NCBI GenBank assembly: GCA_022749845.1
Contig: JAKIWX010000004.1
Location: 1 to 44,691 of the forward strand
Reading direction: 5' to 3'
Length of the DNA: 44,691 bases
From: Thermoplasmata archaeon
Lineage (GTDB): Archaea; Thermoplasmatota; Thermoplasmata; Lutacidiplasmatales; UBA184
Shown here: positions 2,237-34,294 of the stretch, one piece after another
Layout: every line of letters starts with the position of its first letter
How positions within the stretch are numbered: position 1 is the stretch's first letter
Notes under the pieces: generated by a model
The model's database searches: none
Seen by the model: only the letters and a program-made list of their open reading frames with translations
Told to the model about the DNA's origin: nothing
Program-made: the position numbers and the translations under genes

Positions 2237-5191
2237 ATGAGCAACATTCACGAGCCTCCGCGTGCGTGGCGAACTCTGACCCGCTCACCCGCACACCTCG
2301 GAGCTGTCCTTGCCGTGGTCGTGACGGGAATGCTCCTCCTCTCCTCCGGCCCCTCGGCCCAGGGAAGCTCCTCGCTCCGCCCTGGGGCCGTGCGGGACGC
2401 GCCCCTCTCGACAGCCCGTTCGCCGGCCGATACCCCCCACGCCTCCCCGGCCCACTACGCTCCCCCCTCGAGCTTCGTCGGCCCCTTCAACGGCACGCGC
2501 TTCAACGCGAGCTGGGACGAGATCGCTGGGGTCGGCGGAAGCACGTCGTGGGAGGTCGTGGACCCGTCGACCCACACCGTCTATGGATCGAACATCCTCG
2601 GTGGGTTCGTGAGCGCTTGGTCGGAGATGACCGGGCAGCTCTTGCGCGAATCCCCTGTCCTAGTCCACTCTCAGGGTGGCAGCGAGCTCGCCGGCCTCGC
2701 GATCGACCCGGCCCACCACCGTCTGTGGACGGCTGGACTAGAGGGAGGGGGCGGCGGGACGCTCACCATGCTCAACGAGACGACGCTCGTGCCCATCCTC
2801 AACGTATCGCTTCCAAACACGTACCACTCTCTCCCGGAATTCCTCAGCTACGACCCGTCTACCTTGAGCCTGTACGCCCGCGATCAGGGTCATGGGAACG
2901 TGACCTCCTTCAACGCCGCCACCTTGACCTTACAGAACAGCTGGGTCTGCGGCCCGTGCCAGGTGTGGCCCCAGACCCTCCTTCCCGCGCAGAATCTGCT
3001 TCTCGTACCGACCGGTGGACAGAACCTAAGCGTGCTGAACGCCTCGACGCTGCTGCTCGTCCGCAACCTCACCGACCCCATCCCGACCTTCGGGTCGACC
3101 ACCGCGGACTACGACCCGCTGTCTGGGCTCGTGTGGGTGGCGAACAAGAGCACCGCCTCCACCCCCATGGCAGAGTTCAACCTCGCCACGGGCTCGTACG
3201 TCGGCCCAATCGGGACAGGAGTACCCGCCAGTTTCGACATGGTCTACGACCCCCACAGCAACGTATTCGCGGTCGATGGAAGGGTGACCCCCCTCACATT
3301 GACCACGTACAACGCGACGACGGGGAGCGTGGTGGGGCACTACAGCCGCCCCGACCTTCCCCTACTGTCCGAGGCCTTCATGCTCGCCTTGGACCCCAGC
3401 ACGGACGGCGTCGTCGTAGGTTCGTTCGAAGGGAGTCTCGCCGTCGTCCTTTCCCTACCGACCCTGTCGGTCGTGGGCTCGGCCCCGGAGTTCGCCCTGG
3501 AGGGCACCACCTCGGCCTCCGACCCGGCGGCGGGCCTGTACTACTCGCTGGGGATTGCCCCCAGCGACCTCGTCGCGCGCCACTGGTCCAACGGCTCGAT
3601 CGCGTGGACCGAGACCCTCTCGAACCAGTTTTCGGTATCCCTCTTCGGCATGGCGGCGGACCCGGGTCTCGATCGGTTGTACGTGTCCAACGGAACCCTC
3701 CCCGGGTTCGAGGTGCTCAACGCGACCACGGGCGCGCCCGTTGGCGCTATCCCTCTCGCCCCCACCTTCAGCTTCTCCTATGTGACCATCGACTCGGTCC
3801 ACCACTGGCTCTACGCCGTGAACGGCTCGGGAAACGTCACTGTCGTCAGTACCCAATCCGGCATCCCGATCGGCACGGTGACGGCCCCGCTCGGTGCGAC
3901 GTGCGGGGGTGCCGCGGTGGCGGACAGCGTCACGGAGAGCGCCTACGTGCAGAACTGCACGAGCGCCACCGGCACGATCTACAGCATTAACGGGAGCTCG
4001 GCGACCCTCGGGCCCCGCCAGTGGCATATCGGGGGGAACCTGAACGGTGGACTGGCACTCGACCCGGTGCGTCAGATGCTCTACGTGGGAGGGGGCCTTC
4101 CGTACAACGTGACGGTGATACCGGTGCGCACTGCGGGCCCACCCTCCATGTTCCTCACGGGGGGCCAGGCGCCGGGCTACCTCGCGGTAGACCCTAACGC
4201 CGGCCTCGTCATTCTTTCCAACGTCAGTTCGGCGCACGCCTCCGTCTACAGCACCGCCACCCAGACCTTCCTGGGGACGATCCCCGTGCGACTCTCCTTG
4301 GGCGCGCTTGCGAACCCATCCGACGGCGCGTTCGTCATCAACCAGGCGCTCGACGGCTCCAACGTGCTCGTGCGCCCGCTCACGATCCCCGACGCTCCCA
4401 CCGCGCTCACCCTGGTCGCCGGGAACACCACCCTCTCGGCCTCCTGGAGCGCGGTCGGCGCCGCGGGTGCTGGTAACGCGACGATCACCGGATACACCGC
4501 CTCGCTCGGGTCGAGCGGGACCGGGCCGTGGACCGCGAACCTTTCCGTGAGCCAACCCAATGCGACCTTCACCCACCTCAACGACGGGACCACGTACTTC
4601 GTGACGGTCACCTCGCACACCGTGGCGGGGACGAGCCCGCCCGCCCCTCCCGCCTCCGCCGTGCCCGTCGGCGTACCCTACCCGCCGACCGCGGTCGCGG
4701 CCACCACGACCGGCAGCTCCTCGCTCCGGGTGAGCTGGAACGCGCCGTCCTCGACCGACGGCGCGCCGGTCCGCAACTACACGGTCGATTTCGCCACGAG
4801 CAGCGCGGGGCCGTGGACTGCCCTGAGCGCCGGCACAGCGCTCAACGTGAGCCTCACGGGACTCAAGGCGTCGACGAACTACACCGTGTTCGTCACGGCG
4901 TGGAATTCGGTCGGGGCCGGCAACGCGAGCGCCCGTGCGACGGCCAGCACCTCGGCGCCCGCGTCCACCAGCTCCTCGCCCCTCGGTGGCTGGCTCCTCT
5001 GGGCGGTCCTTGCCTTGGTGGCGTTGGTCGCGGTGGTCGCAGCGGTCCTGCTGCTCCGCCGGCGACCGAAGGGCCCGCCTCCCGGCTCGCCCGCACCCGG
5101 GAGCGCGGGCGGTGCTCCTGCTACGAGCTACGAGAACGTCCCGCCGGGCGTGGCGGGACCCCCACCGGGCGCTCCGCCGCCCGCCGCGTAG
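2237..5191 (+). CDS. Secreted, membrane-anchored surface protein: beta-propeller (YVTN-like) repeats, two fibronectin type III domains, C-terminal TM
   Basis: N-terminal hydrophobic segment LGAVLAVVVTGMLLLSSG, many N-x-S/T sequons, FnIII motifs (PDAPTALTLVAG..ASWSA; PYPPTAVAATTTGSSSLRVSWNAP), C-terminal TM LLWAVLALVALVAVVAAVLLLRRR. Confidence 0.8.
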   Translation: MSNIHEPPRAWRTLTRSPAHLGAVLAVVVTGMLLLSSGPSAQGSSSLRPGAVRDAPLSTARSPADTPHASPAHYAPPSSFVGPFNGTRFNASWDEIAGVGGSTSWEVVDPSTHTVYGSNILGGFVSAWSEMTGQLLRESPVLVHSQGGSELAGLAIDPAHHRLWTAGLEGGGGGTLTMLNETTLVPILNVSLPNTYHSLPEFLSYDPSTLSLYARDQGHGNVTSFNAATLTLQNSWVCGPCQVWPQTLLPAQNLLLVPTGGQNLSVLNASTLLLVRNLTDPIPTFGSTTADYDPLSGLVWVANKSTASTPMAEFNLATGSYVGPIGTGVPASFDMVYDPHSNVFAVDGRVTPLTLTTYNATTGSVVGHYSRPDLPLLSEAFMLALDPSTDGVVVGSFEGSLAVVLSLPTLSVVGSAPEFALEGTTSASDPAAGLYYSLGIAPSDLVARHWSNGSIAWTETLSNQFSVSLFGMAADPGLDRLYVSNGTLPGFEVLNATTGAPVGAIPLAPTFSFSYVTIDSVHHWLYAVNGSGNVTVVSTQSGIPIGTVTAPLGATCGGAAVADSVTESAYVQNCTSATGTIYSINGSSATLGPRQWHIGGNLNGGLALDPVRQMLYVGGGLPYNVTVIPVRTAGPPSMFLTGGQAPGYLAVDPNAGLVILSNVSSAHASVYSTATQTFLGTIPVRLSLGALANPSDGAFVINQALDGSNVLVRPLTIPDAPTALTLVAGNTTLSASWSAVGAAGAGNATITGYTASLGSSGTGPWTANLSVSQPNATFTHLNDGTTYFVTVTSHTVAGTSPPAPPASAVPVGVPYPPTAVAATTTGSSSLRVSWNAPSSTDGAPVRNYTVDFATSSAGPWTALSAGTALNVSLTGLKASTNYTVFVTAWNSVGAGNASARATASTSAPASTSSSPLGGWLLWAVLALVALVAVVAAVLLLRRRPKGPPPGSPAPGSAGGAPATSYENVPPGVAGPPPGAPPPAA

Positions 5192-24740: not shown

Positions 24741-24841
24741 GCCGCCGTAGCTCAGTGGCAGAGCGATCGGCTGTTAACCGAAAGGTCAGCGGTTCAAAGG
24801 GGCTGGAGCCCGCTCCGGCCCGGAGATTCCGCTCGGCGGCG
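24741..24841 (+). tRNA. tRNA-Asn(GTT) containing a putative T-loop intron
   Basis: Acceptor GCCGCCG/CGGCGGC, D-arm GCTC/GAGC, anticodon loop CTGTTAA, T-stem AGCGG/CCGCT separated by 36 nt instead of 7. Confidence 0.85.
24798..24826 (+). other. Putative noncanonical tRNA intron (29 nt; boundaries +/-2 nt)
   Basis: Removal restores a T-loop of TTCAATT or TTCAAAT; the intron folds as GGGCTGGAG-CCCG-CTCCGGCCC, flanked by a short TTC/GGA helix and two unpaired segments (relaxed BHB-like). Confidence 0.75.
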
Positions 24842-24854
24842 CCTCCTGGCCGAG

Positions 24855-24927
24855 GGGCCCGTAGCTTAGTGGTTAGAGCGACCGGCTCATAACCGGTCGG
24901 TCGGCGGTTCGAGTCCGCCCGGGCCCA
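24855..24927 (+). tRNA. tRNA with CAT anticodon (elongator Met or Ile2)
   Basis: GGGCCCG/CGGGCCC acceptor, GCTT/GAGC, ACCGG-CTCATAA-CCGGT, GGCGG-TTCGAGT-CCGCC, A73. Confidence 0.92.
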
Positions 24928-25084
24928 ATTCGGGACTCGAGGTGTTGGTCAAACGAGCGCGACCCCCTTCACGGGATTGAGAAGTTGACCGAAACCGCTG
25001 CGAGCGCTAGCTTTGGCCTCGCAATCGCGTGCGTCACACCCATCGAAATGAGATTCTCCCACTACTCTCCTATCTACGTACTAT

Positions 25085-25098
25085 TTTAGTACCCTAAA
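25085..25098 (+). promoter_or_regulatory. Operator-like box 1
   Basis: TTTAGTACCCTAAA, inverted-repeat arms TTTAG/CTAAA. Confidence 0.6.
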
Positions 25099-25116
25099 AA
25101 TTGAGATAGTGTCTTG

Positions 25117-25130
25117 TTTAGTATTCTAAA
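25117..25130 (+). promoter_or_regulatory. Operator-like box 2
   Basis: TTTAGTATTCTAAA, 32 bp from box 1. Confidence 0.6.
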
Positions 25131-25170
25131 AATGTTATGACTTAAGTATCTCGGGTCCCTCTCCCTGACC

Positions 25171-33298: not shown

Positions 33299-33415
33299 GC
33301 GGACCGTCCCGACCTGTGTACTAGGGGAGGCGACGGACACCATCGCGTTGGAGTACCGGCGGAACGATCCGATTCGACGCAACCGCGGGACGCCCGAGGG
33401 CAGACGGAGGTCGGC

Positions 33416-34294
33416 CTACCGAGGAGATTCCCCGAACGGCTGGGGGTAGCTACCGGGCCAGAAGGAAGCAAGAAAGCCATGGAACGCGAATCGAATGCTC
33501 TGCCTGCGCGAGGTGCCTCCCAGGAGATTCATCATGACCAAGTAGCTCGCAACCAGAAGCGCCTTTGCTGTCCCGTAGCGCCGGAAAACGCGAATCCCGT
33601 TCCGACATACGAAGTAGAGTCGTGGCGGGTCCAGGTAGTGGAATGTCTGGGCACCGCGCAGGGTCTCCCTTCCCTCCTGGTGGTCGATGAACGCGTGACG
33701 AAGGATGTAGATCGGAAAGCCTAGCCGCCGAGACCGATGACAGAAGTCGACATCGACGTAGTAGAGAAACAGCTCCTCGTCGAACGGGACCCGCTCGAGT
33801 AGTCTTCGGCTGACGATGCTGCCGCTGGTGATGACGCTCTTGGCCAGCGCGGGACCTCGCGAATGGTTGTACGGCCGAGTCCGGTTGAACCGATGCTCGA
33901 GATAGTTGAACGCGATGATACCCGCCTCGGCGACGCGCGGGATCTGCTCGAGCTCTCCGGCCAGAGTCGAGAAGGCCCCCTCGGAGAACATGGTGTCCTG
34001 ATCGAGGGTCAGTATCCATCGAGTGGAGGTGTTGCGGAGGCAGGCGGCAACTCCCTCGTTAAGCGCCCGGCCGATCCCGAAATTCGCACGTAGGGCGAGC
34101 AGCAGATGTGCCGGTGCTTCTTGGGGTTGGGACTCGATGATTTTCCTAATATAGTCGACGTTCGCACTCCCGTTGTCGACCACGACGTGAAGATCTACCT
34201 TGCCCCGGAGCTGTTCGAGCTGGGTTCTGAGTCTCCCGTCATCGAGGCTAGGATTGAAAGTTACGGTGACGGCGCACAGGCCCTCGAGGTGCAT
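33416..34294 (-). CDS. Family 2 glycosyltransferase (rhamnosyltransferase-like)
   Basis: CAVTVTFNPSLDDGRL..VVDNGSANV..ANFGIGRALNEGVAACLR..ILTLDQDTMFSEG. Confidence 0.85.
   Translation of the reverse strand: MHLEGLCAVTVTFNPSLDDGRLRTQLEQLRGKVDLHVVVDNGSANVDYIRKIIESQPQEAPAHLLLALRANFGIGRALNEGVAACLRNTSTRWILTLDQDTMFSEGAFSTLAGELEQIPRVAEAGIIAFNYLEHRFNRTRPYNHSRGPALAKSVITSGSIVSRRLLERVPFDEELFLYYVDVDFCHRSRRLGFPIYILRHAFIDHQEGRETLRGAQTFHYLDPPRLYFVCRNGIRVFRRYGTAKALLVASYLVMMNLLGGTSRRQSIRFAFHGFLASFWPGSYPQPFGESPR

What the first reader, a model, noticed from the sequence alone, without database searches (positions are those of the whole stretch)
24741..24841. tRNA-Asn(GTT) with a putative 29-nt intron inside the T-loop
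The cloverleaf is good except that T-stem halves AGCGG and CCGCT are 36 nt apart. Removing 29 nt gives a consensus loop TTCAATT or TTCAAAT (junction ~58/59 or 59/60). The insert forms a 9-bp hairpin (GGGCTGGAG/CTCCGGCCC), then a 3-bp TTC/GGA helix flanked by 4-nt unpaired segments AAAG and GATT; symmetric cleavage there excises exactly 29 nt. T-arm introns are known mainly from Thermoproteales-type archaea, and relaxed BHB motifs usually need a broad-specificity splicing endonuclease, so this is unexpected in a euryarchaeal-type genome and easily missed by annotation.
Basis: partly seen in the sequence, partly recalled or inferred. Interest (0 to 1): 0.85.

Follow-up and report, generated by a model that had tools for sequence, protein, structure and literature searches.

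The report
Lineage-wide introns in archaeal tRNA T-loops
This archaeal asparagine tRNA gene is interrupted by a small intron inside its T-loop, and so are at least eleven other tRNA genes in the same genome, in a branch of archaea that reviews describe as having introns only next to the anticodon.

Summary
Window 24741-24841 is tRNA-Asn(GUU) with a 29-nt insert (24799-24827) in the T-loop. Excision at 59/60 restores TTCAAAT and a normal tRNA. The same insert occurs in every parsed tRNA-Asn of its GTDB family (74 distinct sequences, 28-35 nt; Thermoplasmatota, including Candidatus Lutacidiplasma). Its inner helix covaries strongly, so it is not a pseudogene. A covariance model finds 12 tRNA genes with a 59/60 T-loop intron in this genome (Asn, Lys, Arg, Gly, Glu, Asp, His, Gln, Leu, three Ser), and 6-15 hits in each of 37 family genomes; other families of the class have 0-5. 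No second tRNA-Asn was found. The genome has one splicing endonuclease, alpha'2 type, without the crenarchaeal (CSL) or ARMAN (ASL) loop tied to broad specificity, and one RtcB ligase. Position 59/60 in the 7-nt T-loop is geometrically the same as 37/38 in the 7-nt anticodon loop, which is my explanation of how an alpha'2 enzyme can cut it. T-loop introns at 59/60 are a known kind. New, as far as I could search, are the lineage, scale and enzyme type. Splicing is inferred, not observed.

The parts
24741..24798 (+). 5' exon of tRNA-Asn(GUU), tRNA positions 1-59 (anticodon GTT at 24773-24775)
   Evidence: Read; spliced form recognised by ARAGORN as tRNA-Asn(gtt), unspliced form not
24799..24827 (+). 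29-nt T-loop intron between tRNA positions 59 and 60
   Evidence: Boundaries set by the conserved bulges of 74 orthologues; covariance model R1 hit at 24788-24833, 49.0 bits
24800..24821 (+). Inner helix h' of the BHB: GGGCTGGAG (24800-24808) / CTCCGGCCC (24813-24821), loop CCCG
   Evidence: Covaries across relatives; present in the MFE fold
24793..24828 (+). Interrupted T-loop. Central helix T54 T55 C56 (24793-24795) with G24825, A24824, G24823; A57.G24822 mismatch; bulges AA|G (24797-24799) and AT|T (24826-24828)
   Evidence: Register from the family alignment
24828..24841 (+). 3' exon: T60, T-stem CCGCT, acceptor CGGCGGC, discriminator G
24855..24927 (+). Neighbouring intron-free tRNA-Met(CAT); the Asn-Met pair is syntenic in several relatives
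   Evidence: ARAGORN and Rfam; close spacing of the two hits in relatives

Best explanation
24799-24827 is a BHB-type archaeal tRNA intron at position 59/60 of the only tRNA-Asn gene found in a Lutacidiplasmatales-type archaeon (Thermoplasmatota). In the pre-tRNA the T-stem is the outer helix. The first four T-loop bases (54-57) pair with the 3' part of the intron as the central helix, and the intron's own hairpin is the inner helix. Two 3-nt bulges hold the cuts: 58-59|intron and intron|60. The single alpha'2-type EndA cuts both and RtcB joins the exons, giving a consensus T-loop. Because a 7-nt T-loop and a 7-nt anticodon loop are alike, 59/60 is the same geometry as the canonical 37/38, so an alpha'2 enzyme needs only a displaced near-canonical BHB. 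It is one of at least 12 such introns in this genome. Shown: anatomy, conservation, covariation, restored tRNA, single EndA type, RtcB. Inferred: cleavage, ligation and which enzyme does it.
For: 74 distinct orthologous inserts at one site; all spliced loops are TTCGAAT, TTCAAAT, TTCGAAC or TTCAATT. Compensatory changes in all 7 inner-helix pairs and 4 of 5 T-stem pairs. 12 full cloverleafs with T-loop introns in this genome. In all 12, C56 pairs with G and T54 and T55 pair with A or G; G57 faces C (4 genes), A57 faces G (7) or T (1), never C. ARAGORN of 12 spliced forms with the right anticodon, against 2 of 12 unspliced. No second Asn gene. One alpha'2 EndA and one RtcB. PMC8707768 reports the homodimeric EndA of Ferroplasma cutting mini-BHB substrates at 30 C and BHB introns being placed in a 7-nt hairpin loop of an mRNA; it also states that homodimeric forms can cleave BHL-like motifs.
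Against: No RNA data. The window's central helix has only 3 of 4 standard pairs, and alpha'2 enzymes of A. fulgidus and T. acidophilum are listed as narrow in specificity (PMC6379350; PMC12397907). The unconstrained MFE fold is not the cloverleaf (-49.6 against -45.1 kcal/mol), although the intron hairpin is in both. The assembly is 88.5% complete, so a missing second tRNA-Asn or second EndA subunit cannot be fully excluded.
Confidence: 0.93

Rival explanations
1. A pseudogene: an inactive tRNA-Asn gene with an insertion, with the functional copy elsewhere.
For: Some archaeal tRNAs do have dead copies; the assembly is 88.5% complete.
Against: No other GTT tRNA pattern in the genome. Acceptor and T-stem are perfect. 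The insert is kept at the same site with compensating changes in 74 distinct orthologues, and no intron-free tRNA-Asn was seen in the family. Relatives with 5-7 contigs and at least 93% completeness (G010, G027, G029) give one tRNA-Asn hit each.
Confidence: 0.02
2. The insert stays in the mature tRNA as an expanded T-loop (a structural variant, not an intron).
For: No transcript data exclude it; the inner hairpin is stable.
Against: It would break the T54-A58 and 18/55, 19/56 tertiary contacts in a dozen tRNAs at once (established tRNA structure). The insert has BHB bulges and the base facing position 57 follows position 57, which an expanded loop would not need. Excision restores the consensus loop in every case.
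Confidence: 0.02
3. A true intron, but cut by a broad-specificity enzyme that was not found (an extra EndA subunit in the missing part of the genome or too divergent for Pfam).
For: Noncanonical introns elsewhere go with (alpha-beta)2 or epsilon2 enzymes (PMC4033280; PMC12397907); 7 of 12 introns here have the A57.G mismatch.
Against: 59 of 61 genomes of the class, 35 of 37 in this family, show two tRNA_int_endo matches and no more, nearly always in one reading frame. Nothing resembling a second EndA gene was found.
Confidence: 0.05

Closest known systems
Noncanonical tRNA introns of Thermoproteales and other Crenarchaeota, including position 59/60 (PMC4090602)
   Same: Short BHB introns, same 59/60 site, several tRNA genes per genome, some tRNAs with two introns.
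   Different: Those genomes have (alpha-beta)2 EndA with the crenarchaeal loop; here a Thermoplasmatota lineage with a single alpha'2 EndA and no such loop.
Intron-rich Asgard soil genomes, Atabeyarchaeia and Freyarchaeia (PMC11291895)
   Same: tRNA genes widely interrupted at noncanonical positions, in soil archaea outside the Thermoproteales.
   Different: Different phylum; 92-95% of tRNA genes there, about a third here for the T-loop alone. The passages I read give no site-by-site or EndA analysis to compare.
ARMAN-1/2 tRNA introns with epsilon2 EndA (PMC12397907, PMC4033280)
   Same: Archaea outside Crenarchaeota with introns beyond 37/38.
   Different: ARMAN EndA is a three-unit protein with the ASL carrying Y160/K161; the EndA here aligns without that insertion.
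Canonical 37/38 introns of Euryarchaeota cut by alpha'2 EndA (A. fulgidus, T. acidophilum, Ferroplasma)
   Same: Same enzyme type; same geometry (stem, four loop bases, two exon bases, cut, last loop base).
   Different: Here the motif sits on the T-arm, often with a mismatched fourth central pair.

Membership tests
Archaeal BHB tRNA intron (noncanonical position, 59/60) | Interrupts an otherwise complete tRNA gene; removal restores a consensus tRNA | tested here: met
   12 of 12 spliced forms called with the right anticodon; Asn loop becomes TTCAAAT
Archaeal BHB tRNA intron (noncanonical position, 59/60) | hBHBh' organisation with two 3-nt bulges around the cuts | tested here: met
   outer and inner helices covary; bulges AA|N and NN|T (60 is C in a few orthologues)
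Archaeal BHB tRNA intron (noncanonical position, 59/60) | Strictly canonical 4-bp central helix | tested here: not met
   Window gene has 3 of 4 standard pairs (A57.G); 27 of 74 orthologues have 4 of 4. Relaxed motifs are part of the known family, so this is not a defining feature of the wider family.
Archaeal BHB tRNA intron (noncanonical position, 59/60) | Genome encodes EndA and an RtcB ligase | tested here: met
Archaeal BHB tRNA intron (noncanonical position, 59/60) | Excised in vivo | not testable with these tools
   No transcriptome available
alpha'2-type EndA (narrow specificity class) | Two EndA units fused in one chain, catalytic triad in the second only | tested here: met
   triad (Tyr of KYG, His of HARYL, Lys of VRK) in unit 2 only; full-length match to A. 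fulgidus 1R0V/2GJW; fold match to 2GJW with TM 0.87 normalised on the target, AlphaFold2 pLDDT 92
alpha'2-type EndA (narrow specificity class) | Cuts only canonical BHB substrates | not testable with these tools
   Needs in-vitro assay of the recombinant enzyme
Broad-specificity EndA ((alpha-beta)2 or epsilon2) | CSL or ASL insertion next to the active site | tested here: not met
   Profile aligns without gap to wild-type A. fulgidus at this hairpin but needs an insertion against the CSL chimera 3P1Y and ARMAN-2 4FZ2; tight beta-hairpins 30-38 and 212-221 in the model
tRNA pseudogene | Degenerate stems or a second intact copy | tested here: not met
   Stems intact apart from A27-A43; no second copy

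The most novel reading that the evidence does not exclude
A Thermoplasmatota family has expanded T-loop (and some D-loop) introns to about a third of its tRNA genes while keeping one alpha'2 EndA without a CSL or ASL. That enzyme would process displaced BHB motifs with a mismatched central pair, so the accepted link between noncanonical introns and loop-bearing broad-specificity endonucleases would not be general.
Probability: 0.6. Interest if true: 0.72.

Novelty: new member of a known kind. Interest (0 to 1): 0.62.

Why it matters
Reviews state that Euryarchaeota with alpha4 or alpha2 EndA have few tRNA introns, one per gene, with a BHB at 37/38 (PMC4090602), and that diversified introns co-evolved with CSL- or ASL-bearing enzymes (PMC12397907). 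Here an alpha'2 lineage carries about 12 T-loop introns per genome. That makes the co-evolution model directly testable: one recombinant enzyme against T-arm substrates with 4/4 or 3/4 central pairs. It also warns that tRNA inventories of these acid-soil archaea will look incomplete when ARAGORN or plain Rfam is used.

Tried and rejected
First relatives pattern was mis-spaced and found nothing even in the own genome; redone. A junction at 58/59 was rejected on comparative grounds. Pseudogene and retained-insert readings rejected as above. The idea that the lineage must carry a broad-specificity EndA was tested and not supported. Look-ups of two papers cited by PMC6379350 (PMC3241643 and PMC5829648) failed, not held, and the supplementary tables of tRNAscan-SE 2.0 could not be read, so a prior listing of some Thermoplasmata T-loop introns there cannot be excluded. 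Three of the 30 outgroup model hits fetched (L280, L286, L287) did not parse as T-loop-intron tRNAs and are not counted. A first T-arm alignment (A1) held a mistyped Arg row and was replaced by A2.

Full report
What is there. Window 24741-24841 holds a tRNA-Asn(GUU) gene whose T-loop is 36 nt long. Rfam recovers only a broken tRNA at 24741-24794 with 34.9 bits and ARAGORN reports nothing there. The window is contig C94 of a 1.83-Mb, 159-contig assembly, 88.5% complete. Named records carrying the same tRNA-Asn are almost all Thermoplasmata MAGs, including Candidatus Lutacidiplasma silvani AcS3-62 (L092) and AcS5-34 (L125), the latter with T-arm and intron identical to the window's. NCBI places that genus in Lutacidiplasmatales, Thermoplasmatota. 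I therefore take the window to be from this order.

Is it conserved? A pattern for the Asn body was found in 84 of 103 genomes of the same GTDB family. I parsed 74 distinct intron-bearing T-arms, with introns of 28-35 nt. In the parsed set the only normal 7-nt loops belonged to other lineages (L013-L017 of another family of the class; L068 and L081 from records labelled Rhodospirillaceae and Alphaproteobacteria). Bases 58-59 are AA in 73 of 74; the next base varies; base 60 is T or C. Spliced loops are TTCGAAT (44), TTCAAAT (23), TTCGAAC (6) and TTCAATT (1). This fixes the junction at 59/60. The inner helix pairs at 85.5% with its own 3' arm, against a mean of 60% and a maximum of 65% over 1000 swaps of 3' arms among orthologues, and 38-51% when shifted. 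On a 27-sequence alignment that adds Lys, Arg, Gly and Ala T-arms, 90.5% of designated cells pair, against 66% in shuffles and 33-60% in slid versions. All seven inner pairs and four of five T-stem pairs show changes on both sides.

The BHB. With the T-stem as outer helix, bases 54-57 pair with four bases of the intron's 3' part, leaving 3-nt bulges. In 27 of 74 Asn orthologues all four central pairs are standard, in 37 three, in 10 two. In the window they are U54.G, U55-A, C56-G and an A57.G mismatch. This is the same geometry as the canonical 37/38 intron: in both 7-nt loops the first four bases form the central helix, bases five and six plus one intron base form the 5' bulge, and two intron bases plus base seven form the 3' bulge. 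That equivalence is my inference from the layout.

The rest of the genome. A covariance model of the T-arm plus intron (R1) found 12 strong hits in the own genome, and every one sits in a cloverleaf with 7 acceptor and 5 T-stem pairs: Lys-UUU, Asn-GUU, Arg-UCU, Gly-UCC, Glu-CUC, Ser-GCU, Asp-GUC, His-GUG, Gln-CUG, Leu-UAG, Ser-GGA and Ser-CGA. About 38 tRNA loci are known from this assembly (28 Rfam hits plus 10 found only with R1), so about a third carry a T-loop intron. In all 12, C56 pairs with G, T54 and T55 pair with A or G, and the base facing position 57 follows it: G57 faces C (4), A57 faces G (7) or T (1). ARAGORN recognises 12 of 12 after excision with the right anticodon and 2 of 12 before. 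Lys-UUU and Leu-UAG also have a D-loop intron. None of the typed intron-free tRNAs duplicates one of these twelve anticodons.

Distribution. Each of the 37 family genomes searched has 6-15 R1 hits at E <= 1. Thirty-eight genomes of other families of the class have 0-5 at E <= 0.5, and 27 of the 30 outgroup loci fetched parse as T-loop-intron tRNAs, many of them Lys-UUU or Arg, nearly all with 4 of 4 central pairs. The likely history (inference) is an older T-loop intron in tRNA-Lys and a few others, followed by expansion and loosening of the central helix in this family. tRNA-Asn in the sister families has an anticodon-loop intron only (G037, G039) or an anticodon-loop intron plus a short T-loop insert (G038).

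The enzymes. One EndA gene was found. It is a two-unit chain matching A. fulgidus EndA full length, with the catalytic Tyr, His and Lys in the second unit. 59 of 61 genomes of the class give two domain matches and no more, nearly always in one frame. AlphaFold2 gives pLDDT 92, and the best PDB folds are the M. kandleri subunit fusion and A. fulgidus EndA. The CSL was engineered into A. fulgidus EndA in 3P1Y and the ASL is in ARMAN-2 4FZ2. The family profile aligns at that site without a gap to wild-type A. fulgidus, but not to those two. So the enzyme is alpha'2 without either loop. RtcB is present.

How it fits what is known. Position 59/60 is listed among known noncanonical archaeal sites, and the same review says Euryarchaeota with alpha4 or alpha2 enzymes have only canonical-position introns (PMC4090602). 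Alpha'2 enzymes are listed as narrow (PMC6379350) and limited to canonical BHB (PMC12397907). Against this, PMC8707768 reports that the homodimeric EndA of Ferroplasma, a Thermoplasmata member, cuts mini-BHB substrates at 30 C, places BHB introns in a 7-nt hairpin loop of an mRNA, and states that homodimeric forms cut BHL-like motifs. So an alpha'2 enzyme acting on a displaced BHB is plausible. Intron-rich tRNAs outside Crenarchaeota are already known from Asgard soil genomes (PMC11291895). The Lutacidiplasmatales genome paper used tRNAscan-SE and has no occurrence of the word intron in its text (PMC9287336). My literature searches found no report of T-loop introns in Thermoplasmatota, but only open-licence full texts were searchable and the supplements were not.

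Verdict. A real, conserved 59/60 intron; a new member of a known kind. It is interesting because of the lineage, the number of genes and the enzyme type. Splicing is inferred.

Noticed in passing
L244:1420-1559 (G000:C85, around 3393-3532) and L253:1409-1556 (G000:C149, around 33348-33495): tRNA-Lys(UUU) and tRNA-Leu(UAG) each carry a D-loop intron besides the T-loop intron, with perfect or near-perfect BHB (GTAGG/CCTGC; GGCC/GGCC); the Lys double intron is shared by sister families.
   Followed up: partly
L194 (G038), L192 and L193 (G037, G039): tRNA-Asn of sister families: anticodon-loop intron plus a short T-loop insert in G038, anticodon-loop intron alone in G037 and G039.
   Followed up: partly
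L199 (G003:C7:9492-9768); L175 (G000:C3): A tRNA-Met(CAU) with an apparent D-arm intron (CAGGA/TCCTG helix with AAA bulges) in G003, and a similar ARAGORN call in the own genome.
   Followed up: no
window 25075-25145: AT-rich stretch in a GC-rich genome just downstream of tRNA-Met, with two copies of a TTTAGTAnnCTAAAAAT-like element; function not examined.
   Followed up: no
L096 (JAKBKR010000004.1) and L137 (DAIDCO010000094.1): MAG records titled 'bacterium' carry the archaeal intron-bearing tRNA-Asn, so the record titles look wrong.
   Followed up: no
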